Below are positions 984 to 18,384 of a stretch of DNA of 34,126 bases, one piece after another (within the stretch, counting starts at the first letter, position 1; each line of letters opens with the position of its first letter). The notes under the pieces are model-generated. The model was not told where the DNA came from. It searched no databases and saw only the letters and a program-made list of their open reading frames with translations. The position numbers were made by a program, and so were the translations under genes. Source of the stretch: an uncultured Planctomycetaceae bacterium (GTDB lineage Bacteria > Planctomycetota > Planctomycetia > Pirellulales > Pirellulaceae); assembly GCA_903863885.1 (NCBI GenBank), contig CAIPEB010000313.1:1-34126 (forward strand). Direction: 5' to 3'.

Positions 984-1068
984 ATGGCTCTTCTATCCGA
1001 TTGATGGCACGTGGCTTCAATAAGGACCGCCGGATCGAGGCAACCGGTAGGGTCGCAATCGCGGCCCG

Positions 1069-3245: not shown

Positions 3246-3356
3246 GGGAATGGGGTTACCGTTTCATGGTTGTGTGGGATCGACTGCCGGATTCCGCAGC
3301 CCCCAGGGCGTTGCCCTGACCGGGATGATTTACCAAGGAGTGGCTATGAAGAGACA

Positions 3357-4265
3357 TCATCCCGGCTGGGCTGCGGTACTCGGCTCGCGGTCACCTCGGC
3401 TTGGGGTGGCGCAGGATTCGGTGTCAGCGAGCGAGAGCGTCTCGGGCGACGCAATCCGGCGTCGTCGGTGCTTGCGTTTGGACGGCCTGCGATGGGTGGG
3501 AGCGGCGACCTTTTTGCCGCTTGTGGGATGCAGGCCTTCCAGGTGCGGGGCTTCTAGCCACGGTCCGAGGCCGGTCGCGATACTCAAGAGACGCACCGGA
3601 ATCTTGAATAGGCGGGCACCCGTGTAGAAGAGAATCCGCAAATCCATCCAAAGCGACGCGTGCTCGATGTAGCGGACATCGACGGCGAGTTTGCGGCGCA
3701 CGCTTTGAAGATCCGAGTCGGCGGGCAGGCCAAGCTGCGCCAAACCTGTCACGCCCGGGACGGCCAGCAACCGGTGTTCGTAGCCCGGGATCATCTGGCG
3801 GAGCACCACGACGAATTCCGGGCGCTCGGGGCGCGGACCGACCAGCGACATTTCGCCCTTGAGCACATTGAACAGCTGCGGCAGTTCGTCGAGATGCAGG
3901 CGGCGGAGCATGCGGCCCAGCCAAGTGGTACGCGGGTCGTCCTGCTTGGCCCAGACCGGGCCGCTGCCCGCCTCGGCGTCCACGTGCATCGAGCGGAGTT
4001 TGTACATCGTGTAGGCCCGGCCGTTACAGCCGACCCGCTCTTGTTTGAAGATGGCCGGGCCTCGCGAGGTGAGTTTGATGAATGTGGCGAGCAGGCCGAT
4101 CAAGGGCAAAACGGGGATCAAGAGCATCGCTGCCAGGATGCGATCCATGGTCATCTTGCGTGCAAGGTAGGCGGAAACGGGCACTTCGGCCGGGACCGGT
4201 GAGCCCTCGTTGCCCACGGTGCAATGAGCACTCCGTTTCAATCTCTGCGAGTCAATTGCGTCCAT
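3357..4265 (-). CDS. Initiating sugar transferase (bacterial sugar transferase, WcaJ/WbaP core)
   Basis: This is a 302-residue monotopic phosphoglycosyl transferase of the short form, lacking the four N-terminal membrane helices of WbaP. One hydrophobic re-entrant helix spans about 43-63 (ILAAMLLIPVLPLIGLLATF). The family motifs follow in order: GPAIFKQERVG (69-79), YKLRSMHVDAE (88-98), the catalytic LHLDELPQLFNVLKGEMS (123-140, D126 and E127) and LVGPRPERPEF (141-151). Such enzymes start repeat-unit assembly by transferring a sugar phosphate to undecaprenyl phosphate. The catalytic core ends near residue 235. A basic tail of about 65 residues (KKVAAPTHRR, PSKRKHRRRR) follows and is unusual. 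The gene sits between the EpsI-like gene (259-bp spacer with palindromes) and the deacetylase. The sugar specificity is unknown. Confidence 0.95.
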   Translation of the reverse strand: MDAIDSQRLKRSAHCTVGNEGSPVPAEVPVSAYLARKMTMDRILAAMLLIPVLPLIGLLATFIKLTSRGPAIFKQERVGCNGRAYTMYKLRSMHVDAEAGSGPVWAKQDDPRTTWLGRMLRRLHLDELPQLFNVLKGEMSLVGPRPERPEFVVVLRQMIPGYEHRLLAVPGVTGLAQLGLPADSDLQSVRRKLAVDVRYIEHASLWMDLRILFYTGARLFKIPVRLLSIATGLGPWLEAPHLEGLHPTSGKKVAAPTHRRPSKRKHRRRRIASPETLSLADTESCATPSRGDREPSTAAQPG

Positions 4266-4524: not shown

Positions 4525-5178
4525 TCAGAACATCTTCCTGGCCGCGGGGAGGAAGGCCATGAGGAATTCACGACAGGGGTCCGGCGTGTCGGGGGAAGGT
4601 TCCGCACGCAGCACGCTCTGGACCTGGATCTTGTACAGGTAGGGTGACCGGACGAATTCCGTCCTCGCGTTGTCGGGTGCCGACCATTTGCCGTCGGGGC
4701 TCCAGGCCCAATACGAGCGCACGTAGCCTCCTTCGAGCGATTTCGACTCGAACGTTGCCATCCAGAATTGGCCGAACCGTTCTTTGTCGCTGGATTGCAG
4801 CGTGACCCGCGCGCGTCCGCCGACCTGGCGGAACGCGCGCGACGAGAAACACACTTCGGGCGTGTGTTCCGCGGTGGGGCCCATCGGTCCGACAATGACG
4901 AACACGGAAGCCTCTTCGCCCGATTCTTCGTTTTCGTAGGTGGCGACGAATTGTCCCACGGATTGCAGCATGCGTGCCGAGGTCTCGCCGAGTTGGTCCT
5001 GGGACTTCAGTCGCCATTTGCCGAGGGCGGAGGGGACGCATTGTTCGAGGCGTTTTCCGGCCTCTTTCAGTTCGTTGGTGACGCCCCATCGATTGGACAG
5101 GTGGCCCTGGATGACGCCCGCCGCCAAGGTGACGCCCAATGCGATCGCAATGCCGAGGATGGAGGTGAGACGTTTCAT
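4525..5178 (-). CDS. EpsI-like exosortase-associated protein (DUF3485)
   Basis: This 217-residue protein has one N-terminal membrane segment (about 6-24). The rest is a periplasmic-type domain with the EpsI signature HTPEVCF at 105-111, near VFVIVGPMGP, followed by FWMATFES and YVRSYWAW strands. In exosortase systems EpsI is either fused to the exosortase or encoded nearby (DUF3485/PF11984; recalled). Its biochemical role is not settled, but it travels with exosortase and exopolysaccharide genes. Here it starts 39 bp after the TPR gene, in the same direction, so co-transcription is likely. The single conserved Cys and His suggest a thiol-based or metal site, which is inference. The length fits stand-alone EpsI proteins. 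Confidence 0.88.
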   Translation of the reverse strand: MKRLTSILGIAIALGVTLAAGVIQGHLSNRWGVTNELKEAGKRLEQCVPSALGKWRLKSQDQLGETSARMLQSVGQFVATYENEESGEEASVFVIVGPMGPTAEHTPEVCFSSRAFRQVGGRARVTLQSSDKERFGQFWMATFESKSLEGGYVRSYWAWSPDGKWSAPDNARTEFVRSPYLYKIQVQSVLRAEPSPDTPDPCREFLMAFLPAARKMF

Positions 5179-5217
5179 GGCTGGTTTAAGATGGGTCCGT
5201 GGGTCGTTTGAATTGAA

Positions 5218-8200
5218 TCAACCTTTTTTCGGCGGGAGAGATTTTCTCAGGTCCGCGAGCATTTTCTGGTCGGCGGGAGTGAGGATGTCGCGATCGAATT
5301 TGCCTTGTTCGGCTAGATCGAATGCGGCGCGTGCCTTGTCATCCTGGCCCATCTTGAGATAGGCGACTGCCAGGTGGAATTGATGCCGAGGATCCGGGCG
5401 GGGCACCGAGGTCGCTTTCTCCAATAACGGGATCGCCTTGTCGGCCTGCTGTTCCCGCAACAGGATCATCGCCTTGGTGTCCCACAGGAAAGGCGAGGCC
5501 TGGGGACTGGCATAGCTGAGTGCCTGTTCGACGTACTTCAACGCTTCGTCGGATTTCCCCAGCTGCTCGCCGACGACATTGGCAAGATTGTTCAGCGCGA
5601 GGACATGATTCGGCGTTAGCTGGATCACGCGTTGATACAGCGCGATGCACGCTTCGTATTTCTGCTGGACATAGCGCACTGTGCCGATCAGGAACAGTAA
5701 TTCGCTGTTATCCGGGAACTTCTTTTCGGCATCCGCCAGGAGGGGTTCCGCCAGTTCGTAATCCTGCGGCGTCGGCTTGGACTGCAGCAGCGCTCTGGCC
5801 AGTGCCGCGACGGGGACCGGCGAGCTGTCGGTGTGCGAGGCTTCCAGGCACAGGTTGATCGCCCCTTTCGCATCGCCCTGGCGGGCGAGCGACAGGGCCA
5901 GCTCGGGGTAGCCGGCGGGCTCGATCTTCACAAGGTATGCATACCAGCGCTGGGCCGCGGCAAACAGATCGAGCTGCGTGTACAGCCGCCCCAGCATGCC
6001 GGCCAGTTCCGCGCGGCGGCGCGGGTAGTCTTTGAGCTGCTCCAGCTGTTTCGCCGCATAGCTCTCGACCAGCGGTTCGACTTTCGCCGCCTGGCCCTCT
6101 CGGTTGAGCAACAGCGCCCGCAGTCCCACGGTTTCGGCCGCGTCGGGGTTGCGCTGTTCGAGTTGCTTCAGCCATTTGTCGGCCTCGGCCGTGTTGCCCG
6201 TATTGATCAGCAACTCGACGTACGGCGCGATGTGCGCTGCGGCCGGCCGGTCCGTATCGACGAGTGCCTTGTACTGTTGCAGCGCGGCCGGCACGTCGCC
6301 GGTGGACTCGCAGATTTGCGCCAACAGCAGGCGATCCGCATCGGCAGGCCGTGCGGCGGTGTTCATCATGGCTTCCAGGTTCCGCCGCGCCTCGGCCAGA
6401 TTCTGTTCACCGCCGCTGCGCAGCAGCATGTCGGTCTTCATGCGACGATCGGATTCGGTGGGATCGCCGCCGGCCTGATCGAGCAGCTGCAACGCTTCCT
6501 GAAATCTCGCACGATTCGGGGCGGCGGCCAGCAGGTTAGCGAGCATCCAGCGAGACTGCTGCGGCTCAACGCCCTGTTTCAACATGTCACGCAGAAGACC
6601 CTCGGCTTCGCTCAGCGTGGTCTCGTCCCGCATCAGCTGGTCCGCAAGGAACAGCGGAACGGCGGACCAGTTGGGATCGAGCTTGTGTGCCTCGCGAGAC
6701 AAGGCGACCGACATCTTGCGGTATTCGGAGCGTTTCGGCGGTTCCGACAAGTCCGCCAGACGTGCATAGCCTTGCGACATCACGAACTTCCGCTGCACGT
6801 CGGTCAGTTCGGCCTGTTTTTCCAGGGCCTGGAGCGACTCGAGGGCGCGGTCGGGCTGCTTTGAACGCAGGCAATAGGAGAATAAACCCTCGTGGGTTCG
6901 CACGTTCTTCGGTTCGAGCGTGACGGCCTTGCGGAACGACGCCTCGGCCTCGTTGGGTTTTTCCGCCGACAGCAGGATGTATCCCAGAGCCAGCTGAGCT
7001 GTGCCGTCCTGCGGGTTCTGTTCGGCTCGCCGCTGCGCTGCCTGGAGCGTCTGGCCGACATTGCCCAGACCGGCGGCCACGATCAACTCCAGCAGCGACG
7101 ACTCGTCCGAGGCGCCAGCGCCGCGGCTGCGAAATTCCTTGAGGCAGGCTTCCGCATCTTCGCCCCGTCCGGCCTCGAACAGCAGCATGATGAGTCGCTG
7201 GTAGGTGCCGGCCGAACGGTCGCCAAACGCGATGGCCTGACGCATCGCGCTGACCGCTTCGTCGGTCTTTCCGCTGCGCTGAAGGATAAGGCTTTGCAGC
7301 ACGTGGGCCGGCGGCCAGTTCGGTCGTTCCTTGACGAGCTTTGCCTGGAGCGTCTGGGCCGCGGCGATCGCCGCGGCGTTGGTGCCGCCGGCACCGGCCA
7401 GCAGTCGCCGAGCCTGGTAGTAGTCCGCCAGGATTGTGTTGTCGCCGCCCATCGCGCGGAGTTTGTTCTCCCACTGTTCCGCGGAGGGCAGATCGTTGAT
7501 GTCCAGTGAAAGTTCGATGATTTCGGCGATCGCGTCCGGCCCCGCCTTGTCGTCCGCCGCGACGATCTTTACGAGGCGCTGCTGTGCGGACCGCGAACCG
7601 CCACTGCTGCGATCCAGATTTGCGAGTCCGCGCTGAATTGTGCGTTGATCATCGGCACTCAGCGACGTATCCGCGGCCGCTTTCTCGAAAAGCTGCCTGG
7701 CTTCGTCTTTGTGTCCGCGAAGCGACAGCAGGCCCGACCGCAGCAGAAGTCCCGGCACCGGACTGCCGGCGGCATCGGCAATCGCAACGAACTGGCCGAC
7801 GGCGCGATCGGAGTCCTCGGGCGAATTCAGTTGCTGGTACATGAGCGCGAGTTGCCGCCACATCGGCGCCGAAGGCTGGGGCTTCGATTCGGCGGCGCGC
7901 AGTCGCGCCAGCCACTGGTCGCGTTTCGCAGTGTCCGCCGGTGCCCCCGCGGGTTGCGACATTATCTCGACGCCGACCGCCAGTAAATCGACTCGCCACG
8001 GCTGGCCGAGGATCTTCCGCAAATCGCTGGTTTCGATCTCGGCAAGGTCCGACTTGACAACGGTCCAACTGCGCTGGTCGGGCGGCAGTGCGGACTGTTG
8101 CATGAACCCGGCTTCGGCAGCGAGGAACTTGAGTTCGGCCCGCTGCGTCGCCTCGAGCGCCGGGATTGCAAAGAGGATGCCGTAGCACTGCAGGGCCTCG

Positions 8201-9948
8201 GCAGGATGACCGAGAGTGACCAGCGATTGCGCGGCGGCGATCAAACTGGACGGGTCGGAATCGGAAGCCTGAGCCGCTGAGCGGAACGCGGCGACAGCGT
8301 CTTCCCAACGCTGCAGCGCCACATAGCCCTGGAAGAGCATCCGCTGCGCATCGGCCAGGAAGTTCTCGGTGGGCCGTTCCTTGGTTACGAAATCTTCGAG
8401 CTGGCTCGTGGCCGCGGCGTAGTTGCGTTCGGCAAACGAAAACCGGGCCTGCATCAGCTGCTGTTCGCGGCGCAATTGAGTGCGGCTTTCGCGCTCCAGT
8501 TTCGGGCTCACCTGTTTGATCGCGGAGTTCAACTGGGCGGTGGCTTCACGCGCTTCGGCAAAGCTGTTCTTGGCGAGGTAACCGCGGACAATCTGCTGCC
8601 AGAGCGGCAGGCTGGCCTCGTTTGCCAGGTGTGCGGTGCCCCGCTTCCAGGTCTTCAGCGCCGTATCGATATCGCCCTTGCGGAAGTAGAGCGAGCCGAG
8701 TTCGAGGTAGGCCAGCTCGTTGTCCGGTTCCGAGTTCAGAATCAGGTCGTACTGCCTGACGGCCTCCTGAAGGTATTCGTCTCGAGCAGCTTTGCGATCG
8801 GCCGCTCGAGAAACACGGATCGCGATGCGCTGCAGATGGTTAGCCACGGCGAAATGGACCCGCACCGACTTGGGCTCGAGTTCCAATGCCTTGCGCAGGT
8901 CTGGATCGCCGATGACGGCCGTCGCGTCGGACGAGGCAGTCGGAACGGAATCGTCGGGCGAGAATTGCTGGTGATAGTAGTACCGTGCAAGATAGGCCTC
9001 GGCAACTGTGGCGGCGTTCGCCACCAGATCATCCATGACCTGATCCGCGAGCTTCATGCATTCGGCGGTCGTCTTTCCTCGCAGCGAATCGCTCAGGAAA
9101 TCCTGCTGGCGTCGTTCTCGATAGAGGGACGCGAGAAGGACAGACAGCGGCACATCCGCAGGATTCAACGTTCTGGCCCGCTCGAACAGCAGGTCCAGGG
9201 TCATGCCGAGTCGATCGGCTTCTTCGCCCACGGTGGACATTTCGTCCGGCGATCGTCGTTTTGCGGTGTCGGCGACGGCCGGCTTTTCCGGTGCGGCCGC
9301 GGGTTTGTCCGCGAGACCGTTGCGGACCTGTGCATAGCGGGAGATGGCCAGCTGTTTCCAGGCCTGAGCGTAGTTTTTTGCGGCGAGCGGCTCTTGTTTC
9401 GGAGGCGCGTCGGCTTTGAATGCACGCACCTTGCGAACTTCCTGCTCGGCCTTCTGGAAGCGGCTGGGATCCAGTGCGCCGATTTCGATCAGCAGTTGCG
9501 CGCGGCGGCACCGCATCTTATCCACGACGTCCGGGGCAAGGCCGCCGCGGACCTGGGGCCGTTCGGCTAATGCCAGGGCGGTGCCGAAATGCTGGACGGC
9601 GCGGGCCTTGCGGTTCTCGGTCTGTGCGGATTTGTCGTAGGATTCCGCGAGATGCTTCCATTGCTCGGCGCTGTCCGGATTGAGTTGCAGGTAGCGGTAG
9701 ACGTAGTCGGCCGCCTTGGACCACTCGCCCGCCTCTTCGAACCGTCCGGCTTGCACGAGCAGGTCATCGTCAAGGGACTGGACGGAGAAACGGTGCCAGA
9801 AGTACAGGCCGGGGGCCGCGAAAGCCAGAACAACCAGCGTCACGACGAGCAAAGGGATGTTGGCTGCGCAGCGAGTCGATCCAGATCGTTTGTCGCTGGA
9901 TGCAGCGGTTGCCGTGTCGTCTGCGGTATGCCGATCAGGCTTGGACAT
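5218..9948 (-). CDS. Very large membrane-anchored TPR protein of the exosortase/exopolysaccharide locus
   Basis: Starting at the ATG at 9948 the product has 1576 residues. A short cytosolic stretch is followed by one membrane helix at about 30-50 (IPLLVVTLVVLAFAAPGLYF). The remainder is helical repeats of TPR type, for example LAYLELGSLYFRKGDIDTAL, ALGYILLSAEKPNEAEASFR and LALNNLANVVGEQLGKSDEA near the C-terminus. The frame stays open upstream to a TTG at 10107 next to the previous gene's stop, but those 53 residues precede the membrane helix without any plausible function, so the ATG was chosen. It may be the functional counterpart of the PrsT-type TPR lipoproteins of PEP-CTERM systems, acting as a periplasmic scaffold for polymer export; that is inference. 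It lies between the Wzc-like and EpsI-like genes. No catalytic motif was seen. Confidence 0.9.
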   Translation of the reverse strand: MSKPDRHTADDTATAASSDKRSGSTRCAANIPLLVVTLVVLAFAAPGLYFWHRFSVQSLDDDLLVQAGRFEEAGEWSKAADYVYRYLQLNPDSAEQWKHLAESYDKSAQTENRKARAVQHFGTALALAERPQVRGGLAPDVVDKMRCRRAQLLIEIGALDPSRFQKAEQEVRKVRAFKADAPPKQEPLAAKNYAQAWKQLAISRYAQVRNGLADKPAAAPEKPAVADTAKRRSPDEMSTVGEEADRLGMTLDLLFERARTLNPADVPLSVLLASLYRERRQQDFLSDSLRGKTTAECMKLADQVMDDLVANAATVAEAYLARYYYHQQFSPDDSVPTASSDATAVIGDPDLRKALELEPKSVRVHFAVANHLQRIAIRVSRAADRKAARDEYLQEAVRQYDLILNSEPDNELAYLELGSLYFRKGDIDTALKTWKRGTAHLANEASLPLWQQIVRGYLAKNSFAEAREATAQLNSAIKQVSPKLERESRTQLRREQQLMQARFSFAERNYAAATSQLEDFVTKERPTENFLADAQRMLFQGYVALQRWEDAVAAFRSAAQASDSDPSSLIAAAQSLVTLGHPAEALQCYGILFAIPALEATQRAELKFLAAEAGFMQQSALPPDQRSWTVVKSDLAEIETSDLRKILGQPWRVDLLAVGVEIMSQPAGAPADTAKRDQWLARLRAAESKPQPSAPMWRQLALMYQQLNSPEDSDRAVGQFVAIADAAGSPVPGLLLRSGLLSLRGHKDEARQLFEKAAADTSLSADDQRTIQRGLANLDRSSGGSRSAQQRLVKIVAADDKAGPDAIAEIIELSLDINDLPSAEQWENKLRAMGGDNTILADYYQARRLLAGAGGTNAAAIAAAQTLQAKLVKERPNWPPAHVLQSLILQRSGKTDEAVSAMRQAIAFGDRSAGTYQRLIMLLFEAGRGEDAEACLKEFRSRGAGASDESSLLELIVAAGLGNVGQTLQAAQRRAEQNPQDGTAQLALGYILLSAEKPNEAEASFRKAVTLEPKNVRTHEGLFSYCLRSKQPDRALESLQALEKQAELTDVQRKFVMSQGYARLADLSEPPKRSEYRKMSVALSREAHKLDPNWSAVPLFLADQLMRDETTLSEAEGLLRDMLKQGVEPQQSRWMLANLLAAAPNRARFQEALQLLDQAGGDPTESDRRMKTDMLLRSGGEQNLAEARRNLEAMMNTAARPADADRLLLAQICESTGDVPAALQQYKALVDTDRPAAAHIAPYVELLINTGNTAEADKWLKQLEQRNPDAAETVGLRALLLNREGQAAKVEPLVESYAAKQLEQLKDYPRRRAELAGMLGRLYTQLDLFAAAQRWYAYLVKIEPAGYPELALSLARQGDAKGAINLCLEASHTDSSPVPVAALARALLQSKPTPQDYELAEPLLADAEKKFPDNSELLFLIGTVRYVQQKYEACIALYQRVIQLTPNHVLALNNLANVVGEQLGKSDEALKYVEQALSYASPQASPFLWDTKAMILLREQQADKAIPLLEKATSVPRPDPRHQFHLAVAYLKMGQDDKARAAFDLAEQGKFDRDILTPADQKMLADLRKSLPPKKG

Positions 9949-10103
9949 TAAATCGAAGTCCCGTGCGAGGTCGCATCGCAACACATTGGTGGACCAGCAA
10001 CCAGGTGCCACCAGCCCGCCGCGACTCTGGGCTAAGCGACGCAACCGTATTGAGGTTGAAGCAAGCGGAAGACGGAGAATAAGTTTCCGACATACTGGAG
10101 GAC

Positions 10104-12521
10104 TCAAGGCGTTTCGTTGTCGGCCGCGTCCTTGCGGTGCATGTAGGCGTAGTCACGGTCGCGGTAGCGATAGTAGTGGCTGCTGCGAACGCCGCTGAGC
10201 ACCACGCCGACAGGATTCGCGCCGGCCTGCAGAAGGCGGGTATGTGCTTCGGTGATGTAGGCCATGCGGCTCGTGCCGCGGATGGCGGAAATCAAGGTGG
10301 CATCGGCCGTGCGTGTGAGCACGAACGCCTCGCTCGCGATCAGCGCCGGGGGGGTGTCCACGATGATGAATCGGTATCGCGAGCGAAGTTGTTCCAGGAG
10401 CGCCGGCCACTGCGGGCCGCTGAGCAATTGATGAGGACTGGATTTCAGATCCCCGGCCGGAATGATGTGCAGCTGTTCGTCCCACTGGCTGGAGATGGCA
10501 TCGTCGAGGTCGGCTTCCCCTGCAAGCAGTTCGGCGAGTCCCGGAGTCAGGGGGATTTCGACGAGGTTGTGGATGTCGGGTGACCGCATATCGCCGTCGA
10601 CCACCAGCACGACTTCCCTCAGTGCCTGCCCGATGCTCATGCCGAGTTGCATGGCAATGCTCGTCTTGCCTTCGTGCGCGGTGCCGCTCGTGATGGCAAT
10701 GACTTGCGTGTGATTCAGCGAGCGGTTCAGCAGCAGGCGGGTCCGCAGCGCATCCACCGTTTCCACGAACATGGCGTACTCGTACGAAAGGTGCCGCGAC
10801 CTCGAGGCCGACCCGCTGAGGCGGACGGCAGGCAGAGGGGCAATTTCGCCGATGACGGGGATGCGAGTTCTCTGTTCCAGTTCCTGTTTGTTGCTCACCC
10901 GTCGCGTCCGCATTTCCCACAGGACGGCTAGAGCAAAGGGCGCGACCATGCAGGCCGCGGACGCCAGGCCGATGTTGCGCAGCAGAGGGCTTTCCATCGG
11001 CGCGCGGGGCAGCGGTGCCAGATCGCGAGGGATAGGCGTGATTCGATCCGGTGCCCGCTGTTCGATGTTCAGCCGGAGAATTCGTTCGGACACGAGCGAA
11101 TACAGCCCGTCGGCTTTTTCCAGTTCGTTCTGCAGGAACTCCATTCCCAACACGTCCTTGTTGTATTCGCCGAGTTTGCCGCGCTGGGAATCAAGCCATT
11201 CGCGCAGCACGTTCAATCGCGATTGGGCCTGGGCATAGCGTGTACGCGAATCGGCCAGCATGCGGTCGCGAAGCTGTTTGCGCACAACTTCCCTCTTGTC
11301 ATCGCGGGCCTTCTTCAGAGCGGCTTCCAGGGTGGCCACCTCGTTCAGCAGCCTCTTGTAGGCGAGCTGGGTCGGGTGTTCTTCGGCGCCGATGGCTCGA
11401 TCGCGAGCCTGAGCGACGGCTGGCCGCCGCTGGTTGAGTGCCGCGAGCATGCTCTGCAATTCCGGGTCCGTATCGAGGGCTTTCTCGACGTCGCTTTCGA
11501 GCACGCCTCCGTCCGCATCCGTCGTTGAGCCTTCGGCAGGCGGCTTCCCGCCGTCGGTATTTGCGGTCAATTGCCGCAGGCCTTCAAGTTCGGCCTTGAG
11601 AGTTGCGGCCTGCAATTCGGCATCGAACAGCAGCGACTGCAGGCTCTTGGTGCGGCTTCGCGAGCCCTCGTCGTCTTTGGCGGATCCAACCAGCGTCGCC
11701 GGCAGTTCCGCGGCCAGAGAGTCCGGCCCTTCCTTGGCCGTGCCGACGGCTTTGGATTCGAGTTCGCCGCGCAGCTGCCGTACCAGGGACTCCTGCTCTT
11801 TCTTGGCCCGTTCCAGTTCATCGAGCACGTAGCGGACGCGGGCCAATCGTTCCGACTCGTGGTAACCGAGGTAGGAGGTGATGATCGCGTTCACGATGCG
11901 CTGCGCGTTCCGGGCGTGGCTGCACGAGAGGGAGACGCGTAAGAGTTCCGATCCCTTGACGGGGGAAAGCTGCAGTTGTTTGGAGAGCCAGCGGATCGGA
12001 TCTTCTTCGCGGAGGATGTCCATCAGTTCCGCGAACTCCCCCGCGGAGATGTCGCTGGACTGGAGGTTTTCGGCGAGGCGGTCGATCTCGGTGTCGTCCT
12101 TCTTGGCGTTGAAGACATTGCGAAGCGCGTCTTCGAGCACGCTCTGGCTGCGCATCAGGCTGATCTCGGTTTCCACCAGGCGTTCGTAGTGCATCTCTTC
12201 CCTTTCGGGCGAAACCACGAAGGGCTCAGCCTCGGAGATGCGTACCATGAGAGACGCTTCGTACTTTTGCTCGCAGGTGAACCACAGTACGAGCGCCGCA
12301 ACTCCGGCCAGCAGCAGCCCCGCCGGCAGTGCCAGGTGCCACCAACTGCGCACGGCGCTGAGCACCAGCTGCGGTGAGACGACTTGATTCGAGCCGAACC
12401 CCGGCGGCGTGACGGGCGCGAAGGGCGGGGGCGGACCGAAGGCTGTCACGGGGTGAGGAACCACGAGTCCCTGCGGCGAGGGCGTCGGGGAAACGTGTTC
12501 GTTTCGGGGGGAGTCTGTCAT
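10104..12521 (-). CDS. Wzc-like polysaccharide co-polymerase / tyrosine autokinase
   Basis: This 805-residue fusion protein starts with a Pro-rich cytosolic stretch (1-50) and TM1 at about 62-81. A Wzz-type periplasmic domain follows, with long coiled coils (about 225-480), the PRAPMESP motif before TM2 (about 515-535), and a C-terminal BY-kinase. The kinase shows Walker A TSGTAHEGKTS (611-621), Walker A' VLVVDGDMRSP (638-648), Walker B FIIVDTPP (718-725) and a C-terminal Tyr cluster YYRYRDRDYAYMH (783-795), the usual autophosphorylation tail. Such proteins set chain length and control polymer export through cycles of autophosphorylation. The acidic/Gly-rich insert around 320-345 is unusual. 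The gene lies 329 bp after the exosortase gene and ends 155 bp before the TPR gene. Classification is secure. Confidence 0.96.
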   Translation of the reverse strand: MTDSPRNEHVSPTPSPQGLVVPHPVTAFGPPPPFAPVTPPGFGSNQVVSPQLVLSAVRSWWHLALPAGLLLAGVAALVLWFTCEQKYEASLMVRISEAEPFVVSPEREEMHYERLVETEISLMRSQSVLEDALRNVFNAKKDDTEIDRLAENLQSSDISAGEFAELMDILREEDPIRWLSKQLQLSPVKGSELLRVSLSCSHARNAQRIVNAIITSYLGYHESERLARVRYVLDELERAKKEQESLVRQLRGELESKAVGTAKEGPDSLAAELPATLVGSAKDDEGSRSRTKSLQSLLFDAELQAATLKAELEGLRQLTANTDGGKPPAEGSTTDADGGVLESDVEKALDTDPELQSMLAALNQRRPAVAQARDRAIGAEEHPTQLAYKRLLNEVATLEAALKKARDDKREVVRKQLRDRMLADSRTRYAQAQSRLNVLREWLDSQRGKLGEYNKDVLGMEFLQNELEKADGLYSLVSERILRLNIEQRAPDRITPIPRDLAPLPRAPMESPLLRNIGLASAACMVAPFALAVLWEMRTRRVSNKQELEQRTRIPVIGEIAPLPAVRLSGSASRSRHLSYEYAMFVETVDALRTRLLLNRSLNHTQVIAITSGTAHEGKTSIAMQLGMSIGQALREVVLVVDGDMRSPDIHNLVEIPLTPGLAELLAGEADLDDAISSQWDEQLHIIPAGDLKSSPHQLLSGPQWPALLEQLRSRYRFIIVDTPPALIASEAFVLTRTADATLISAIRGTSRMAYITEAHTRLLQAGANPVGVVLSGVRSSHYYRYRDRDYAYMHRKDAADNETP

Positions 12522-12850: not shown

Positions 12851-13840
12851 TCAGGCTTTCTGCCGGCGCAGGATTGTCCGCACATCTGCGACTTCGACCT
12901 GGCGGATCAGGCTGCCAAAATACAGGCTGACAGCCAAGAACAGGATGGCGGCCAGCGGGATCGTGAGCCAACCTGCTGCGTCATGGGCAAATTTCTGTGC
13001 GGTCTCGCCGGACACGTACTGGTACAGGAGGGCAGTAGCCACGATTCGCGTGACGTTGCTGGCCAGCGCGACGGGCAGCACGCTGAGCAGCACCACGCAG
13101 CGGAGCCACCAGGAACTGCGAACGAGCACCACGAAGGCATAGCCCAATGCGACGATGCCGATGAAGATGCGCAGGCCGCAACAGGCTTCGGCCACTTCCA
13201 GATGATAGTCGCCAAACAGAATCGTATTGCCTTCGGGGAATGCCGGTTGACCCAGCACCTGCAGGATCCAGCAACTGGCTTGCGTCGCGACGGTTTGCAG
13301 CGGATAGCTCAACCATCGTTCGATGCGGTACGGTGCGGGAACCATGAAAACCAGGAACACGATGGACGGCAGGCTCCACCCGAGGACGCGCCATCCTGCC
13401 AGCATCCACACAGTTCCCGCAATCCAAGGGACCATTGACCAGCCGTCGAATGCCTCCCAGTGGATCGATGCGCCGAAAATTCGCATCGCGACGCTGACTG
13501 CAATCAGGATCAGGCCGCCGAGTTGTATGTGAGGGCTGAACGCCGGCATGCGACTGCGGCGAGCCCACGCAAAGTAGACCGCCAACGGGACAACGAGAAA
13601 GCCGTGCGAATAGTCGGGAACATTGAGCCATGCATCGACGAGCGAACCGAAAGTCGGCCAATAGCACCAGACAAACGCGCCGGCCAGAACCAGTGCCGCG
13701 CAAACGCGGAGCCAGGGAAGCTGGATTTCGCCGGCTGCGCCCGCGGATCTCCCGCCAATGGCGTTGGGGGATCGAGCGGCGTCGGACAATCGCGGCGTGG
13801 TTCGCGCATTCGATTCCGGTTTCTTCAGCAGAGTCTTCAT
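12851..13840 (-). CDS. Exosortase (exosortase/archaeosortase family)
   Basis: This 329-residue polytopic membrane protein has about eight hydrophobic segments from residue 43 to 312. It carries the family's catalytic triad: Cys in VAEACCGLR (C220, the first Cys of the pair), Arg in SNVTRI (R265) and His in FAHDAAGW (H286). Early motifs PDYSHGFLVVP and FMVPAPYR also fit EpsH-like exosortases. Exosortases cleave C-terminal PEP-CTERM-type signals of exported proteins and probably attach them to a surface glycan. The gene follows the ECF sigma gene by 34 bp and precedes the Wzc-like gene, so it belongs to the exopolysaccharide locus. The first 40 residues are polar and non-conserved. The subfamily cannot be assigned without a profile search. 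A sorted substrate with a canonical VPEP tail was not found in this window. Confidence 0.96.
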   Translation of the reverse strand: MKTLLKKPESNARTTPRLSDAARSPNAIGGRSAGAAGEIQLPWLRVCAALVLAGAFVWCYWPTFGSLVDAWLNVPDYSHGFLVVPLAVYFAWARRSRMPAFSPHIQLGGLILIAVSVAMRIFGASIHWEAFDGWSMVPWIAGTVWMLAGWRVLGWSLPSIVFLVFMVPAPYRIERWLSYPLQTVATQASCWILQVLGQPAFPEGNTILFGDYHLEVAEACCGLRIFIGIVALGYAFVVLVRSSWWLRCVVLLSVLPVALASNVTRIVATALLYQYVSGETAQKFAHDAAGWLTIPLAAILFLAVSLYFGSLIRQVEVADVRTILRRQKA

Positions 13841-13874
13841 GGTTCGCGTTAGAGCCTTCGCTTCGTATTCACCT

Positions 13875-14567
13875 TCAATCGCCGTCGAGAAATGACTTGA
13901 GTTTGCGTCGCAGACGATGGCGGCGCTGCCAGACGTTGGCGTCGCTCATCTCCGGGGCGTCCGGGGCACGGCCTGCCCGGTCGTCGCCCAGCAGAAATCG
14001 CTGCAGGAAATCCCGTTCACGATCCGAAAGCGTCGAGGCGAACTCTCGCATGAGTTGTTCCATTTCCGCTTTCGAGTCCGAGTCGCTGACGATTCGCATC
14101 CGCCCGCCGATGCGTTCGCGCCGCAGTCGTCGGCGTTCGCTGCGGACGTAACGCAGGATTTCATTGCGCGCCAGCCCGACCAGGAACACGCCGAACCGGC
14201 AATCGCGCTCGGCGTCAAATCGCCCCAGCAGCCTGCCCGAGTCCCGCACGAGTGCGAACCAGACGCGTGCTGCGATCTCCTCGGTCAACTGATCCTGCTG
14301 GCCCAGCCGCCAGAGCATGTACTGGATGGCCTGGCACAGCCGCGGGTGACACTCCAGGTACAGCCGCTCCCACGCTTGCTGGTCGCCGTCCGCGCAGGAC
14401 CGCACGAGTATGCCGTCTCGTGTAACTTCGTCTCGAACCGTGGGTGGGGACGTTGCCGCGGCCGCCGGCGCAGCCGTCGCATTGCGAGAACGAGGCTTTC
14501 CCGACGTACGTCGTTGGTCGCGAGGCGTTTTCGCTGTCCGCCGGGACCGATTGGGGCTAACAGCCAT
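13875..14567 (-). CDS. RNA polymerase sigma factor, ECF-like, in the exosortase operon
   Basis: This 230-residue protein has a low-complexity Arg/Ala-rich N-terminus (1-45), then a sigma-70 region 2 (about 53-145). Region 2 shows DGDQQAWERLYLECHPRL, LTEEIAARVWFALVRD and the DNA-melting/-10 helix FLVGLARNEILRYVRSERRR. A region 4 (about 170-226) with LSDRERDFLQRFLLGD and a recognition helix MSDANVWQRRHRLRRKL follows. It lacks regions 1.1 and 3, as expected for group 4 factors. It lies between the FixJ-like regulator (58 bp upstream) and the exosortase (34 bp downstream) on the same strand, so it probably controls, or is induced with, the polysaccharide locus. No anti-sigma gene is adjacent. Target promoters are unknown. 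Confidence 0.87.
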   Translation of the reverse strand: MAVSPNRSRRTAKTPRDQRRTSGKPRSRNATAAPAAAATSPPTVRDEVTRDGILVRSCADGDQQAWERLYLECHPRLCQAIQYMLWRLGQQDQLTEEIAARVWFALVRDSGRLLGRFDAERDCRFGVFLVGLARNEILRYVRSERRRLRRERIGGRMRIVSDSDSKAEMEQLMREFASTLSDRERDFLQRFLLGDDRAGRAPDAPEMSDANVWQRRHRLRRKLKSFLDGD

Positions 14568-14625
14568 TAACCGGACTCATGACCTCGTTGCACCGGGGCT
14601 ATTACCGCCGTGTACCACTTGCTCA

Positions 14626-15393
14626 TCACTCGGCTTTTTCACGCGCCGATCCGCAGTTCTCGTCCCTTGTCGAGCGCACGCCCGGTGTGTACATTTTCGC
14701 GGTCAGCGGACGGAAATCTAACACGGCCGCGTCCCTATTTGTCTGGGACAGCTCATGCGTGACACGAAACACAAACCTCAGCAATTCGGCGGGCGATCGC
14801 AGTTCCAGCTTGCTGATGATCCTCGCGCGGCGCAACTCCACGGTGCGGACGGAGACGTTCAGGGCGGCCGCGATCGCTTGCGTCGAGTCATGCTCAGCGA
14901 GCAGAAGGAGAACATCCTGTTCTTTCGCATTCAGCAGCGCCAGTCGCTCGCGCAATAGATCTTGTACGGCAACGCGGTCTCTTCGCTGACGGTCCAACTG
15001 GATAGCGGCCTGCAAGGTCTCCCACAACGTTTGCTCCTCGCACGGCTTTCGGAGGAATTGGAAAGCTCCCATTTGCATGGCACGAACTACGGTGTCGTGA
15101 TTTGAGCATTCAGTTAGAAAGACCACGGGAAGGGGCGAGCCTTGCGCCCGCAGATACGTCTGAACCTGCAAGCCGCCCACATCGGGAATTCGAACTTCGA
15201 GCACGAGACAGCCCGGCCGGCGCGGATCAAACGTGTTGAGAAATGTCTGTCCCGAACGGAACCCGAGGTAGTCGAGTCGCATTCCACTGACCAGTTGCTC
15301 CATGAACTCCCGCGAAGCAGCGTCGCCGTCCAGATGACACACGGTCGTTGGGTGGTTGTCGTTCGCGGGGTTCACGGACACTTCTTCAGCCAT
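14626..15393 (-). CDS. FixJ/LuxR-type response regulator with Glu at the phospho-acceptor position
   Basis: This 255-residue protein has a receiver domain (about 15-130) and a LuxR-type HTH (about 155-205; LLLLAEHDSTQAIAAALNV then VSVRTVELRRARIISKL). The receiver keeps the acidic pocket (D22, D24 in HLDGDAA), Thr94 in VFLTE and Lys116 in FLRKP. The phospho-acceptor position is Glu66 (GCLVLEVRIPDVGG; codon GAA) instead of Asp. Asp-to-Glu changes often mimic the phosphorylated state, so this regulator may be constitutively active or respond to something else; that is inference. It is the first gene of the minus-strand locus, ahead of the ECF sigma factor, and faces the plus-strand NusG-like gene across 1.6 kb. 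Its sister at 17568 carries the same substitution. The tail after 210 is unconserved. Confidence 0.93.
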   Translation of the reverse strand: MAEEVSVNPANDNHPTTVCHLDGDAASREFMEQLVSGMRLDYLGFRSGQTFLNTFDPRRPGCLVLEVRIPDVGGLQVQTYLRAQGSPLPVVFLTECSNHDTVVRAMQMGAFQFLRKPCEEQTLWETLQAAIQLDRQRRDRVAVQDLLRERLALLNAKEQDVLLLLAEHDSTQAIAAALNVSVRTVELRRARIISKLELRSPAELLRFVFRVTHELSQTNRDAAVLDFRPLTAKMYTPGVRSTRDENCGSAREKAE

Positions 15394-16028
15394 TCAATCA
15401 AATGCACTCAATCGGCCCATTGCAGGAGTGCGGTACTTCTTCGGGCTCGGACCTGTGTTCGCGCACTCCGTTCCCGTCGCGCTTGCAACTTCTGGTCTTT
15501 CGTGATCCAGTACCCGAAGGAAAGCACCGCAACGTCCAGCGGCACCTGTCAAAGCAATCCAATGCAGGTGATAGCTTGCGAATCATATCGCCCACCGTCA
15601 ATGATTTTGAATCCGCGTTCATAGCAGTTTTCTGAAATATACTGCCTCGCAATGTTGCTATATGAGTTGTTGCGCATTTCAAGTGCGCATTCGCGCAAAT
15701 CGATTTCGCCACGTGATGTTTCAGTGACATTTGTGTCAGACGATCATCACCTCGCGTCGAAGTCCGCTCAGAGGTTTGCGGTCGTGTTTGCACGGAATCG
15801 TTTCAGTCAGTCGCTTCGTTGTCCTGTGCGGCTGGCCTGGCAACATGTCGCGGTCGTCAATTCGTGCGTACATCACCGGACTTTTAGGTCATCAGCGTTT
15901 CGCTGACGGGTTGCTTGTCCAGTCGACACGCCCAACTGGCGAAAGTCGGTGGTGGCGATGCGTTCTGCAGCGTGTGGCCGACATCGCACAATGCAGACGG
16001 GATTGCCGTAGTTGGGCCGCGTAACTCA

Positions 16029-16170
16029 GAACGTGTTTGAATAAGCCGTTTCACCCTCCTGCAATGCGGGAGTGTCGCACGCGAAAGCGTCCGGGGAGGG
16101 GGATTCGCCCCCTCTCCGGCCCTAGCGAGCCGACTTTCCTCAAGGGACGAGTGAATTTCAAAACGCCTTC
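16029..16170 (+). repeat. Palindromic dispersed repeat, copy B (intergenic)
   Basis: A 142-bp element starts with GAACGTGTT (16029-16037) and ends with AACGCCTTC (16162-16170), a decayed version of the matching inverted end. It aligns with the minus strand of copy A along its length, sharing the cores AGCGTCCGGG, TTCGCCC, CTCCGGC and TGAATT. The long internal inverted repeat is imperfect here. It lies in the non-coding region between the divergent regulators. No transposase is encoded, so it could be a MITE-like or other palindromic element. Confidence 0.75.
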
Positions 16171-16962
16171 TCAAAGCGGGTGCCATTGTCATCGGTCAGG
16201 GAGTGGACTTTTCGATTGGTGTAGGTTCGGTTGTGTGGGTGTCTGTCGCGGCGTCCGCATCGCCAAGATCCCCGGGCAGTATGGCGTGTGGGTGAAAGTC
16301 CTGTGCGAGTGTAGGAAAAACGGCAGTTGCGAAAGTGGAATGCTCGACCACAAATCGCCGCGTGTCGGCGCATTTAGCAACTCTTGCTATACGAAAATGG
16401 TTGACGACCGGCATTGTGTTTCCGGAGGACTACGCTGATAAATGAGTGCTCAGCGCAAAAGCGGCAAGAGATCAATGAAATGTGCGGAGGCTGGCGCAAG
16501 TAATGGGTAAATGTCGGTCGTGCATGTAGGGGTATTTCTTACATGAAACAGGTGGCACTCAAAAAGTGTGGCGGTGATGGCGGGAGTGCTCATGAAATGA
16601 TGGGTATCCCGGGCGTGTGGAGAGGCATGCTGGGCAGTCACAGTATGACACGCGAATAGTCCGCGGCAGCACAGTACTGGAGGTCTCGCCTTTTCCGACT
16701 GTGGCATGCGTGCGAGAGAACCGGCGGCGCTGCCAACCCTTTTAATTGTTGATTTGTTGGCGGCAAGTGAGCCGGCACGCGGATTCGGTGGCGAGACGCT
16801 TCTCAGCACATACATCGAAATCCCGGCGGAATTAGGCGTGTAGCGTTGCTTCGCCAGGGGAATTCGGCCGGCGGTTCTCGTGCCGCTGAACGATGGGTGC
16901 CGCGGTGAGGTGTGTGTCAGGTCGCATTCCGGCAGTCGCGTCTTCGGTCAGTGTTGGTCAAC

Positions 16963-16968
16963 TATAAT
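16963..16968 (+). promoter_or_regulatory. Candidate -10 box before the NusG-like gene
   Basis: TATAAT lies 11 bp before the ATG at 16980. No good -35 element is seen at 16-18 bp spacing. If used, transcription would start about 5 nt before the ATG and give a nearly leaderless mRNA that lacks the AGGA motif (16969-16972). The alternative is that AGGA serves as Shine-Dalgarno for a longer transcript and the box is chance. Confidence 0.3.
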
Positions 16969-16979
16969 AGGACTCAGGC

Positions 16980-17537
16980 ATGGCATCATCCCACAATTGC
17001 CCGGCGGTTTATCCGGGTGGACTTCTTGACGGATCACTGCATGACGAGTGCGATCGTCAGTGGTGGGCATACTACACGAAGGCCCGGCAGGAGAAATCGT
17101 CTGCGGAGGACCTGCGGGCCATGTCGATCCCGCGGTACCTCCCGCTGATCCATCGCTCGGTCTTGTACGGTCGAAGCAGAGTGCATCGGTGGATTCCTTT
17201 GTTCCCGGGATATGTTTTCGTCTTTGCGAGCGAGGACGAGCGTGTGCAATCGCTGACGACGAATCGCGTGACCACCACCCTTCGCGTGATGCAGCCCGAT
17301 CGACTGCGGCAGGACCTCCTGCAATTGCAGAGGCTGATCGAATCGGGCGAGCCGGTCACCGCAGAGGACCGTCTCGAAGAGGGCGATCGCGTGCGAGTCC
17401 GGAGCGGCGCACTGGCTGGTATTGAGGGGCTTGTGCTGCAGCGCCGCGGTCAACGTCGATTGCTGGTCAGCGTTGATTTTTTGCAAAAGGGTGCATCCAT
17501 AGCCATCGACCAGGACCTGCTGGAGGTGATCTCGTAG
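16980..17537 (+). CDS. NusG-like specialised transcription antiterminator (RfaH/UpxY type)
   Basis: This 185-residue protein has an NGN domain (about 27-115) with WWAYYTKARQEKSSAEDL, the typical PLFPGYVFVF strand (73-82) and a following helix region. After it comes a KOW domain (about 131-183; LEEGDRVRVRSGALAGIEGL). This is the layout of NusG paralogues such as RfaH, LoaP and UpxY, which bind RNA polymerase and let it read through long polysaccharide operons. Here it stands divergent from the 15-kb exopolysaccharide locus and starts a three-gene plus-strand unit; the FixJ-like gene follows after 30 bp. Its likely job is processive transcription of that locus, which is inference from context. 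The first 25 residues are extra relative to NusG. AGGA 7 nt upstream supports the ATG. It is unlikely to be the housekeeping NusG, which normally sits beside secE and ribosomal protein genes. Confidence 0.93.
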   Translation: MASSHNCPAVYPGGLLDGSLHDECDRQWWAYYTKARQEKSSAEDLRAMSIPRYLPLIHRSVLYGRSRVHRWIPLFPGYVFVFASEDERVQSLTTNRVTTTLRVMQPDRLRQDLLQLQRLIESGEPVTAEDRLEEGDRVRVRSGALAGIEGLVLQRRGQRRLLVSVDFLQKGASIAIDQDLLEVIS

Positions 17538-17567
17538 CATCGAAGACTCCCTAATTGAGGCTAACTC

Positions 17568-18287
17568 ATGGTACGGAAACAGACGCTGTTCGTGGTTGAC
17601 GGCGACGAGAAGCGCCGAGCGGAAATGGAAGAACTCGGTCGATCACTTTCTCTGCAGGTTGAAGGCTTCGACGGCGGCCAGAGTTTCCTGGCCGCGTATC
17701 GCTCCGGACACTGCGGTTGCCTGATTTCGGAGTTTCGGATTTGGGATATCAGCGGTCTCCAGATCCAACATCATCTGCAGGAGATCGGCGCATGGCTGCC
17801 GGTGATTTTTGTCTCCGCTTACGTGACAGTACCGCTCGCCCTGCGCGCGATCCGCAGCGGCGCGCTGGATGTGTTCGAGAAGCCGGCAGACGAAACGGAG
17901 CTGACTGAAGCGGTGCAACGAGCAGTTCGCCTCTGCAACCGGCGAGCGGAGCAGGCGGCAAGGCGTAGCCGGCTGTTGGCGTCGATAGAAAACCTGACCA
18001 AAGGGGAGGTTGAGGTGCTGGCGGCGCTTCAGACAGGATCCTCCCCGCACGAGATGGCCGCAACCTTGGCGGTCTCTCCGCGAACCGTTCAGTTACGGCG
18101 AAAACGCATATTGCAGAAGCTCGGCGCTCGGACGCTCGCCGAGTTGCTCGACATGTGCCATGAGATCGAAGGAGCCGGTGCCGGTTGCCTTTGGGGATGC
18201 GAGGAACGGCGATTCTCTCCTTGTGGGAAGTTGCATCGTGCGTCCGGGAGTGACGCCATGGAGCCGTCCGGCCGGCGCATGCAGTGA
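17568..18287 (+). CDS. FixJ/LuxR-type response regulator, second copy with Glu at the phospho-acceptor position
   Basis: This 239-residue protein has a receiver (about 5-120) with D11 and D13 in FVVDGDEKRR, Ser83 in VIFVSAY and Lys105 in FEKPADE. The residue that should be the phosphorylated Asp is Glu55 (GCLISEFRIWDISG; codon GAG). A LuxR-type HTH spans about 142-196 (LTKGEVEVLAALQTG, SPRTVQLRRKRILQKLGART). A Cys-containing tail without recognisable domain follows. It is clearly a paralogue of the regulator at 14626-15393, sharing GLQ.Q in the receiver and RTV.LRR.RI..KL in the HTH. GAGG about 8 nt upstream supports the start. It is 30 bp downstream of the NusG-like gene, so both are probably co-transcribed. 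The shared Asp-to-Glu change suggests phosphorylation-independent action on the exopolysaccharide locus (inference). Confidence 0.93.
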   Translation: MVRKQTLFVVDGDEKRRAEMEELGRSLSLQVEGFDGGQSFLAAYRSGHCGCLISEFRIWDISGLQIQHHLQEIGAWLPVIFVSAYVTVPLALRAIRSGALDVFEKPADETELTEAVQRAVRLCNRRAEQAARRSRLLASIENLTKGEVEVLAALQTGSSPHEMAATLAVSPRTVQLRRKRILQKLGARTLAELLDMCHEIEGAGAGCLWGCEERRFSPCGKLHRASGSDAMEPSGRRMQ

Positions 18288-18384
18288 TTAAGGGAAAAGA
18301 TGCAGCACGGGCGTGTCAGGATCCGGCCTCACGCGGCGAAATGATTAGACAGAGAGATTCGAGGTTCGAACGGGTGGTTACGCC

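What the first reader, a model, noticed from the sequence alone, without database searches (positions are those of the whole stretch)
14626..18287. Two paralogous FixJ-like regulators both have Glu in place of the phospho-acceptor Asp
Seen: the receiver at 15393-14626 reads GCLVLEVRIPD and the one at 17568-18287 reads GCLISEFRIWD, where FixJ-like receivers have LxxD.R.P. The acidic pair, Thr/Ser and Lys of the active site remain in both. Known: Asp-to-Glu at this site often mimics phosphorylation in response regulators. Inferred: both may be locked active, or read a non-phosphate signal, and the parallel change suggests it arose before their duplication. They bracket the NusG-like gene and head the two divergent units, so they probably control the exopolysaccharide locus without a kinase.
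Basis: partly seen in the sequence, partly recalled or inferred. Interest (0 to 1): 0.75.

Follow-up and report, generated by a model that had tools for sequence, protein, structure and literature searches.

The report
Kinase-free regulators of exosortase loci
Two gene-control proteins beside a surface-polymer gene cluster of a planctomycete bacterium have lost parts needed to accept a phosphate signal, and they belong to a family of such proteins found at the same kind of gene cluster in related bacteria, which suggests that a switchable regulator was replaced by one that needs no partner kinase.

Summary
The core observation holds: both FixJ/StyR-type regulators (P1, 15393-14626; P2, 17568-18287) have Glu at the acceptor (GAA, GAG). 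One detail is wrong: the acidic pair is not intact; its second acid, the metal ligand, is Gly in both. It is no local error. A tree built without the trait columns puts P1, P2 and all tree rows from exosortase loci in one clade of 20 (100/100; 18 Glu, 1 Asp, 1 Ala), so Glu predates the P1/P2 split. Of 95 distinct exosortase loci read, 11 have such a gene upstream: 16 genes, all Glu. In two close pairs the Glu codon changes only synonymously and the receiver has dN/dS 0.05-0.19, while metal ligand and Thr/Ser can vary. They are pseudo-receivers (aspartate-less receivers), a known class; I found no description of this clade or its setting. Most likely they work without phosphate and are controlled by their own synthesis. 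'Locked on by Glu' is possible but unproven: natural Asp and Ala members exist. A 26-bp coding-strand element lies upstream of 37 of 95 exosortase genes, and before P1; it may be a target of the NusG-like factor.

The parts
14626..15393 (-). P1: FixJ/StyR-type pseudo-receiver regulator; D22, G23 (lost second acid), E66 (acceptor), T94, K116; first gene of the exosortase unit
17568..18287 (+). P2: FixJ/StyR-type pseudo-receiver regulator; D11, G12, E55, S83, K105; 30 nt after the NusG-like gene
16980..17537 (+). NusG-like factor, nearest the UpxY/RfaH type (NCBIfam UpxY E 1.7e-21, 76.9 bits, below the cut-off of 100)
13875..14567 (-). sigma-70 (ECF-like) factor, second gene of the exosortase unit
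   Evidence: below curated cut-offs
12851..13840 (-). exosortase (EpsH family)
   Evidence: Pfam E 1.9e-60
10104..12521 (-). Wzc-type chain-length determinant / tyrosine autokinase
   Evidence: AAA_31 over its Pfam cut-off; NCBIfam matches below theirs
5218..10107 (-). PrsT-like TPR protein
   Evidence: below cut-off
4525..5178 (-). EpsI-like protein; counterparts in L071 and L151
   Evidence: (weak)
3357..4265 (-). bacterial sugar transferase
15461..15478 (-). core of a conserved leader element (GACGGGAACGGAGTGCGC on the minus strand), 67 nt before the P1 start codon; candidate ops-like site
15394..16979 (.). 1.6-kb divergent intergenic region between P1 and the NusG-like gene

Best explanation
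P1 and P2 are DNA-binding regulators of FixJ/StyR architecture whose receivers no longer take phosphate (pseudo-receivers of the aspartate-less kind). They belong to a clade found so far in the window's order (which holds a MAG named Pirellulaceae) whose members sit upstream of an exosortase / exopolysaccharide locus and/or next to an UpxY/RfaH-like NusG gene. Glu replaced Asp once in this clade, before P1 and P2 separated; the metal-binding acid was free to change and was lost in several lineages. Working model (inferred): an ion-pair network of D22, K116 and E66 holds the receiver in a metal-free shape that is always competent to dimerise, so activity is set by when the protein is made, not by a kinase. 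P1 is the first gene of the exosortase unit, behind a conserved leader element, and P2 is made with the NusG-like factor. Together they would couple start (P1/P2, sigma factor) and elongation (NusG-like) of the exosortase operon. Shown: sequence states, clade, gene order, purifying selection, leader element. Inferred: no phosphorylation, dimer, DNA target, direction of control, NusG target.
For: Acceptor Glu and second-acid Gly in both. Clade of 20 rows at 100/100 with trait columns excluded: 18 Glu, 1 Asp, 1 Ala. 11 of 95 distinct exosortase loci read have a FixJ-like gene within 4.5 kb upstream: 16 genes, all Glu; counting only loci that are hits of the exosortase searches: 7 loci, 11 genes, 11 Glu. 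Seven of 51 distinct NusG-like loci (one NusG broken, on C102) have a clade-type regulator within 640 nt downstream: 6 Glu, 1 Ala. In the clade DD1 Asp, Lys and the Pro after it are kept in 20 of 20, the second acid in only 7 of 20. Receiver dN/dS 0.19 (L071/L308) and 0.05 (L309/L310), with synonymous GAA/GAG exchange at the acceptor in both pairs; L071/L308 differ at the second acid (Ser/Asp) and at Thr/Ser (Ala/Ser) yet both keep Glu. Kinase-like stretch within 1.5 kb: 63 of 184 Asp receivers, 1 of 28 Glu receivers, that one by its place L352, outside the clade. P1 model: receiver, long helix, HTH, mean pLDDT 85.3; nearest solved folds StyR and FixJ.
Against: No experiment or expression data. 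The Asp member L005 and the Ala member L312 show that Glu is not indispensable in this setting. The link between Glu and loss of the second acid (18 of 25 Glu against 2 of 128 Asp receivers, Fisher p 7e-16) is not independent of ancestry: only 4 independent pairs on starred branches, sign test median p 0.5. Seven clade members keep an acid there, so some might still bind metal. 84 of the 95 exosortase loci show no such gene in the stretch read (22 of the 95 have under 4.5 kb upstream), so it is optional. Two NusG-like genes (L219, L220) are followed by a NarL-like regulator with Asp. A hybrid kinase lies 3.9 kb from P2. The search profile A3 held 9 Glu rows of 10, which favours Glu types; 4 of the 11 loci came in that way.
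Confidence: 0.6

Rival explanations
1. Heterodimer / coincidence detector: the Glu regulators of one locus (P1 with P2) work as a mixed pair, so the unit is switched only when both transcription units are on, as reported for BldM-WhiI in Streptomyces or RcsA-RcsB in capsule control. (This and the phosphomimic reading overlap with the best explanation, so the odds do not add up to 1.)
For: Two or three clade members share one locus in the window, L071, L337 (G513), L343 (G349) and contig C102. BldM and WhiI are orphan receiver-type regulators; WhiI lacks the Lys and one acid of the pair (PMC4125116, passages read).
Against: Seven of the 11 exosortase loci with such a gene show only one, some of them on short contigs. 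No complex was modelled or tested.
Confidence: 0.2
2. The receiver senses something else (a small molecule or a partner protein) at another surface; Glu, Asp and Lys only hold the fold together.
For: Receiver under purifying selection although phosphate chemistry looks lost. Bourret et al. 2025 (PMC12632262, section 19 read) describe pseudo-receivers that act through partner proteins. A natural Ala member exists (L312).
Against: I identified no conserved ligand site or partner gene, and made no dedicated search for either; the pocket residues DD1, Lys and Glu are among the best kept.
Confidence: 0.25
3. True phosphomimic: Glu itself mimics phospho-Asp through Thr/Ser and Lys and locks the active state.
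For: Glu kept in 18 of 20 clade members with Lys in 20 of 20 and Thr/Ser in 17 of 20; synonymous-only change at the Glu codon in two close pairs. Glu is the commonest replacement in aspartate-less receivers, 26% (PMC4395418, passages read).
Against: Natural Asp and Ala members; three members with Ala at Thr/Ser; the K-3 switch residue is not Phe in 6 of 20, P2 included, though it is not Phe in 28 of 126 ordinary Asp rows either; Glu alone often does not activate (PMC4395418).
Confidence: 0.25
4. Decaying or neutral receivers: phosphate control was lost and the pocket drifts without function.
For: The second acid, Thr/Ser and D+4 vary in the clade; contig C102 carries a broken NusG-like copy beside clade members.
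Against: Receiver dN/dS 0.05, 0.17 and 0.19, lower than in the HTH part in the three pairs that could be scored (the 0.17 pair is near saturation, dS 1.5); DD1, Lys and mostly Glu kept across genera.
Confidence: 0.05

Closest known systems
StyR (1yio) and FixJ (5xso, 5xt2), FixJ-type response regulators
   Same: Same domain order, best sequence match in the PDB (E 1.4e-30 to 1yio for both); best fold match of the P1 model (Foldseek E 1.6e-16 to 1yio).
   Different: Acceptor Glu and second-acid Gly; below the curated cut-off of NCBIfam FixJ (119 and 132 bits against 255); no adjacent partner kinase seen.
Aspartate-less receivers / pseudo-receivers (Maule 2015, PMC4395418, passages; Bourret 2025, PMC12632262, sections 4, 7, 18, 19 and part 1 of 9)
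   Same: Acceptor replaced, by Glu (the commonest replacement, 26%); first acid and Lys kept, second acid usually lost, as those papers report for the class.
   Different: Here it is a coherent clade tied to one kind of locus, with natural Asp and Ala variants.
ChxR of Chlamydia trachomatis (PMC3960148: abstract start in a listing, its find call gave no passage; further facts from PMC4395418 passages)
   Same: Natural Glu at the acceptor; active without phosphorylation.
   Different: OmpR/PhoB subfamily, not LuxR/GerE output; an exosortase link is not known to me.
BldM-WhiI of Streptomyces (PMC4125116, passages read)
   Same: Orphan atypical receiver-type regulators working as a pair; degenerate metal site in WhiI.
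   Different: WhiI also lacks the Lys, which all 20 clade members keep; other targets.
PrsK/PrsR control of PEP-CTERM genes in Proteobacteria (Haft 2006, PMC1569441, passages read)
   Same: Regulatory genes tied to exosortase (EpsH) and exopolysaccharide genes; TPR protein PrsT alongside.
   Different: PrsR is a sigma-54-interacting regulator with a kinase; here a FixJ-type protein without an evident kinase.
RfaH, UpxY and LoaP specialised NusG factors (their biology and the ops sequence are recalled, not from a call)
   Same: NusG-like gene at a polysaccharide locus; a leader element on the coding strand.
   Different: Below all curated cut-offs; the element is longer than ops and untested.

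Membership tests
NarL/FixJ-type response regulator | Receiver fold followed by a GerE/LuxR helix-turn-helix | tested here: met
   Pfam over cut-offs for both; P1 model and Foldseek match to StyR and FixJ; P2 was not modelled
NarL/FixJ-type response regulator | Phospho-acceptor Asp and metal-binding acidic pair | tested here: not met
   Glu and Asp-Gly in both
NarL/FixJ-type response regulator | Partner histidine kinase | tested here: inconclusive
   None found beside clade members; a hybrid kinase 3.9 kb from P2; detection by one query
Aspartate-less receiver / pseudo-receiver | Receiver-family match with the acceptor Asp replaced | tested here: met
   PF00072 matches and Glu at the acceptor
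Aspartate-less receiver / pseudo-receiver | Activity without Asp phosphorylation | not testable with these tools
   needs biochemistry
Phosphomimic (locked-on) receiver | Glu needed for the active state | tested here: inconclusive
   Kept in 18 of 20 clade members, but natural Asp and Ala members exist; activity not testable here
UpxY/RfaH-type antiterminator (window 16980-17537) | Score over the curated cut-off of the family | tested here: not met
   UpxY 76.9 of 100 bits, RfaH 61.1 of 144.5; the NusG domain is over its Pfam cut-off (33.5 of 22.2)
ops-like element | Conserved on the coding strand in the transcribed leader and bound by the NusG paralogue | tested here: inconclusive
   Strand bias and position shown; transcription start and binding not tested

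The most novel reading that the evidence does not exclude
A clade of response-regulator descendants in planctomycetes gave up phosphate chemistry once, by Asp-to-Glu, and was then captured as the kinase-free regulator of exosortase loci. P1 and P2 would act as a mixed pair, a coincidence detector, joined in one circuit with a dedicated NusG paralogue that reads a 26-bp ops-like site in the exosortase leader. The 20 natural variants (Glu, Asp, Ala; metal ligand present or lost; Thr/Ser present or lost) then form a ready-made series for asking what Glu does in pseudo-receivers.
Probability: 0.2. Interest if true: 0.75.

Novelty: new variant of a known kind. Interest (0 to 1): 0.56.

Why it matters
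How pseudo-receivers are switched is called a mystery in a 2025 review (PMC12632262, abstract). This clade offers a natural test: Glu fixed by descent and mostly kept while the metal ligand and Thr/Ser vary, with Asp and Ala exceptions, in one locus type. It also points to how these planctomycetes may control exosortase and exopolysaccharide loci: a kinase-free FixJ-type regulator, a sigma factor and a NusG-like factor in different mixes, plus a shared leader element. The library searches that bear on this listed no paper describing it; I saw listings (20 of 35, 20 of 200 and 10 of 66 papers) and passages of PMC1569441, and most subscription journals are not held.

Tried and rejected
Local sequencing error: rejected, since two genes and relatives in other genomes carry Glu. 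Strict rule 'Glu always goes with loss of the second acid' (my idea): rejected, 7 of 25 Glu receivers keep an acid there and the phylogenetic pair test is not significant. Single origin of all Glu receivers: rejected, p-AU 1.2e-11; seven Glu rows lie outside the clade, and none showed an exosortase or NusG-like gene in the stretches read. NusG in L071 at 2218-2784: rejected, by eye its translation does not look like NusG and the window's NusG gave no tblastn hit in L071. A FixJ operator as the meaning of the leader element: disfavoured, since 31 of 82 exosortase loci without FixJ have it, against 6 of 11 with FixJ. Rfam match in the intergenic region: none worth keeping (one at E 2.7, 16 bits against a gathering score of 50). 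The shared GC-rich stretch near 16060-16175 was not pursued; it looks like a dispersed repeat. One search stopped with an error after its tables were printed; the missing part (most discriminating columns) was not used. The find call on the ChxR paper gave no passage. The P1 model was not inspected for pocket geometry.
Full report
WHAT IS THERE. The two ORFs exist as stated. Both are FixJ/StyR-type: receiver plus GerE domain over Pfam's cut-offs, best solved match StyR 1yio at E 1.4e-30 for both. Against StyR and FixJ the acceptor position is Glu in both; the codons are GAA (P1, 15198-15196) and GAG (P2, 17730-17732). Lys and Thr/Ser are kept. The acidic pair is not: the second acid, which binds the metal directly in working receivers (PMC12632262, section 7), is Gly in both. 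An AlphaFold2 model of P1 has mean pLDDT 85.3 with receiver, long linking helix and HTH, and a low-confidence tail after about residue 221; its closest solved folds are StyR and FixJ.

THE LOCUS. On the minus strand: P1, sigma factor, exosortase, Wzc-type kinase, TPR protein, EpsI-like protein, sugar transferase, polysaccharide deacetylase, glycosyltransferase (several of these below curated cut-offs). On the plus strand: a NusG-like gene nearest the UpxY/RfaH type, then P2 after 30 nt. Between the divergent units lie 1.6 kb. So P1 heads its unit; P2 follows the NusG-like gene. A hybrid PAS-kinase-receiver-Hpt gene starts 3.9 kb after P2.

IN THE SAME GENOME. P2's nearest paralogues are on contig C102: L002 (53%, Glu, second acid Gly) and L003 (46%, Glu, Ser); P1's is L005 on the same contig (52%, Asp, His). 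C102 also has a NusG-like copy broken into pieces in different frames, so it looks like a second, partly broken copy of the control cassette; no exosortase was seen in the stretches read (1-20000 and 22000-41172). A further Glu receiver, L009 (contig C329), is outside the clade described below.

RELATIVES. A search of 241 genomes of the family with P2 gave no close orthologue: the best long matches outside the own genome are 36-38% identical; a fragment in G198, cut by a contig end, is 43% over 114 residues. With P1 the best outside hit is G058 (47%). I read upstream regions for 40 exosortase matches after, best first, plus loci fetched for other reasons; weaker listed matches were not read. 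Sorted to 95 distinct loci, 11 have a FixJ-like gene within 4.5 kb upstream, 16 genes in all, and all 16 have Glu. Four of these 11 loci (L315, L335, L336, L337) came in through a search with a Glu-rich profile. The other 7 loci (11 genes) are exosortase hits, and all 11 genes have Glu. The remaining 84 loci have a sigma factor (19), a NusG-like gene (15), both (4), or neither (46) in the stretch read; 6 of the 95 have under 1.5 kb and 22 under 4.5 kb of upstream sequence. Of 51 distinct NusG-like loci, 7 have a clade-type regulator within 640 nt downstream (6 Glu, 1 Ala); one of these (L201/L221) is cut by a contig end and was not in the tree, the NusG copy of C102 is broken, and four came in through the Glu-rich profile. 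Two others (L219, L220) are followed by a regulator with Asp that I read as NarL-like from its sequence.

DESCENT. 154 distinct FixJ-like receivers (155 rows less one truncated copy of P1): 128 Asp, 25 Glu, 1 Ala. A careful tree of 92 rows (all 28 unusual ones plus 64 ordinary Asp rows under 60% identical to each other), with the acceptor and acidic-pair columns left out, has one clade at 100/100 with 20 rows: 18 Glu, the Asp row L005 and the Ala row L312 (its bootstrap had not fully settled). All 16 exosortase-linked rows are in it, with the three C102 rows and L312, which follows a NusG-like gene; P1 and P2 lie in different parts. L005 is sister to P1 (100/99). The simplest reading is one Asp-to-Glu change at the base and later changes to Asp and to Ala. 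The acidic/non-acidic state of the second acid needs 5 changes within the clade; 7 of its 20 members still have an acid there. Holding all 25 Glu rows in one clade is rejected (p-AU 1.2e-11), so Glu arose elsewhere too. The raw link between Glu and loss of the second acid (18 of 25 against 2 of 128) is strong but does not pass an independent-pairs test.

SELECTION. Between L071 and L308 the receiver has dN/dS 0.19; between L309 and L310, 0.05; between L322 and L353, 0.17 but with dS 1.5. In these three pairs the acceptor codon differs only GAA/GAG. L071 and L308 differ at the second acid (Ser/Asp) and at Thr/Ser (Ala/Ser) but keep Glu and Lys. Across the clade DD1 Asp, Lys and the following Pro are 20 of 20, Thr/Ser 17 of 20, Phe at K-3 14 of 20. 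The receiver is thus in use; metal binding and the Thr switch are not what is strictly kept. P1/L005 and P2/L002 were too diverged for dS over the receiver.

KINASES. Using one hybrid-kinase query, a kinase-like stretch lies within 1.5 kb of 63 of 184 distinct Asp receivers and 1 of 28 Glu receivers (Fisher p 6e-4); the latter is, by place, L352, outside the clade. At a looser cut-off the query also touches the receiver of another regulator on C102 (E 1e-5). One query misses many kinases and can match receivers, so this is suggestive only, and it ignores shared ancestry.

LEADER ELEMENT. Comparing the intergenic region of the window with that of C102 showed a shared 23-mer before P1 and before L005. 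A 16-base core with up to 3 mismatches is present on the coding strand of 37 of 95 distinct exosortase upstream regions (mean 2.0 kb), against 5 of 95 on the other strand; of 167 shuffled regions 2 reach that level. Positions outside the core, not used for selection, are conserved too, giving 26 bp (GCAACC-S-ACGGGRACGGAGTSCGCGC). Controls, coding / other strand: Wzc 26 / 5 of 61 (it lies just downstream, so often the same site), sigma 7 / 9 of 24, NusG 1 / 2 of 48, TPR 0 / 0 of 9. In FixJ-headed loci it lies before the aligned start of the FixJ protein in the window, C102, L071, L334, L335, L336, L339 and, with 4 mismatches, L151, so FixJ sits between element and exosortase; it was not found at this level in L337, L343 and L353, and has 4 mismatches in L338. 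It is found without FixJ in 31 of 82 loci, hence is not a FixJ site by that test. In the own genome two sites have at most one mismatch, before P1 and before L005; six more have two. Over 15 genomes an 18-base pattern with up to 2 mismatches gave 29 sites against 11 for the pattern read backwards, so two-mismatch sites are partly chance. Strand bias, position and the NusG paralogue suggest an ops-like site; the likeness to ops (sequence recalled) is a lead, not a test. A promoter element is an alternative.

MECHANISM AND STANDING. Known class: aspartate-less or pseudo-receivers (PMC4395418, passages; PMC12632262, sections 4, 7, 18, 19 and part 1 of 9). Glu is the commonest replacement and the second acid is the most freely lost, as here. 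What is new is the clade, its tie to exosortase loci, and the pattern that first acid, Lys and mostly Glu are kept while metal ligand and Thr/Ser are not. I judge a kinase-free regulator controlled by its own synthesis most likely; Glu as a strict phosphomimic is possible but not needed; a P1/P2 mixed pair is an attractive, untested idea.

LIMITS. The order is inferred from L071, a MAG titled Pirellulaceae whose two regulators are identical over the aligned part to those of G484, listed as same order as the window's genome. No expression or binding data were available to me.

Noticed in passing
window 15461-15478 (-); C102:33451-33468 (+); 37 of 95 exosortase upstream regions: Conserved 26-bp coding-strand element upstream of exosortase units (GCAACC-S-ACGGGRACGGAGTSCGCGC), possibly an ops-like site for the NusG-like factor.
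   Followed up: partly
L036 9998-10481 (own contig C102:31997-32477): A NusG-like gene broken into pieces in different frames beside L002, in what looks like a second copy of the P1/NusG/P2 control cassette without an exosortase in the stretches read.
   Followed up: partly
window about 16060-16175; L036 about 10950-11051; L018 785-844: A GC-rich stretch with hairpins shared between the two divergent intergenic regions and a third contig of the same genome (86% over 43 nt with C102, 85% over 61 nt with L018); perhaps a dispersed repeat or RNA; no Rfam family.
   Followed up: partly
family-wide, 179 of 241 genomes at E 1e-8: A NusG paralogue related to the window's is common in the family, usually one match per genome; 7 of the 30 loci checked have an exosortase gene within 1.5 kb.
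   Followed up: partly
L219 8024-8746, L220 3827-4528: In G058 and G059 the NusG-like gene is followed by a NarL-like regulator with intact Asp, so NusG genes pair with different regulators.
   Followed up: partly
L040 5032-5787, L152, L341, L153, L078, L128, L352: Glu receivers of FixJ type outside the clade, with no exosortase or NusG-like gene in the stretches read; separate origins.
   Followed up: no
window 19437-21623 (+): Glycoside hydrolase family 43 protein with a discoidin-like domain downstream of P2; relation to the exosortase locus unknown.
   Followed up: no
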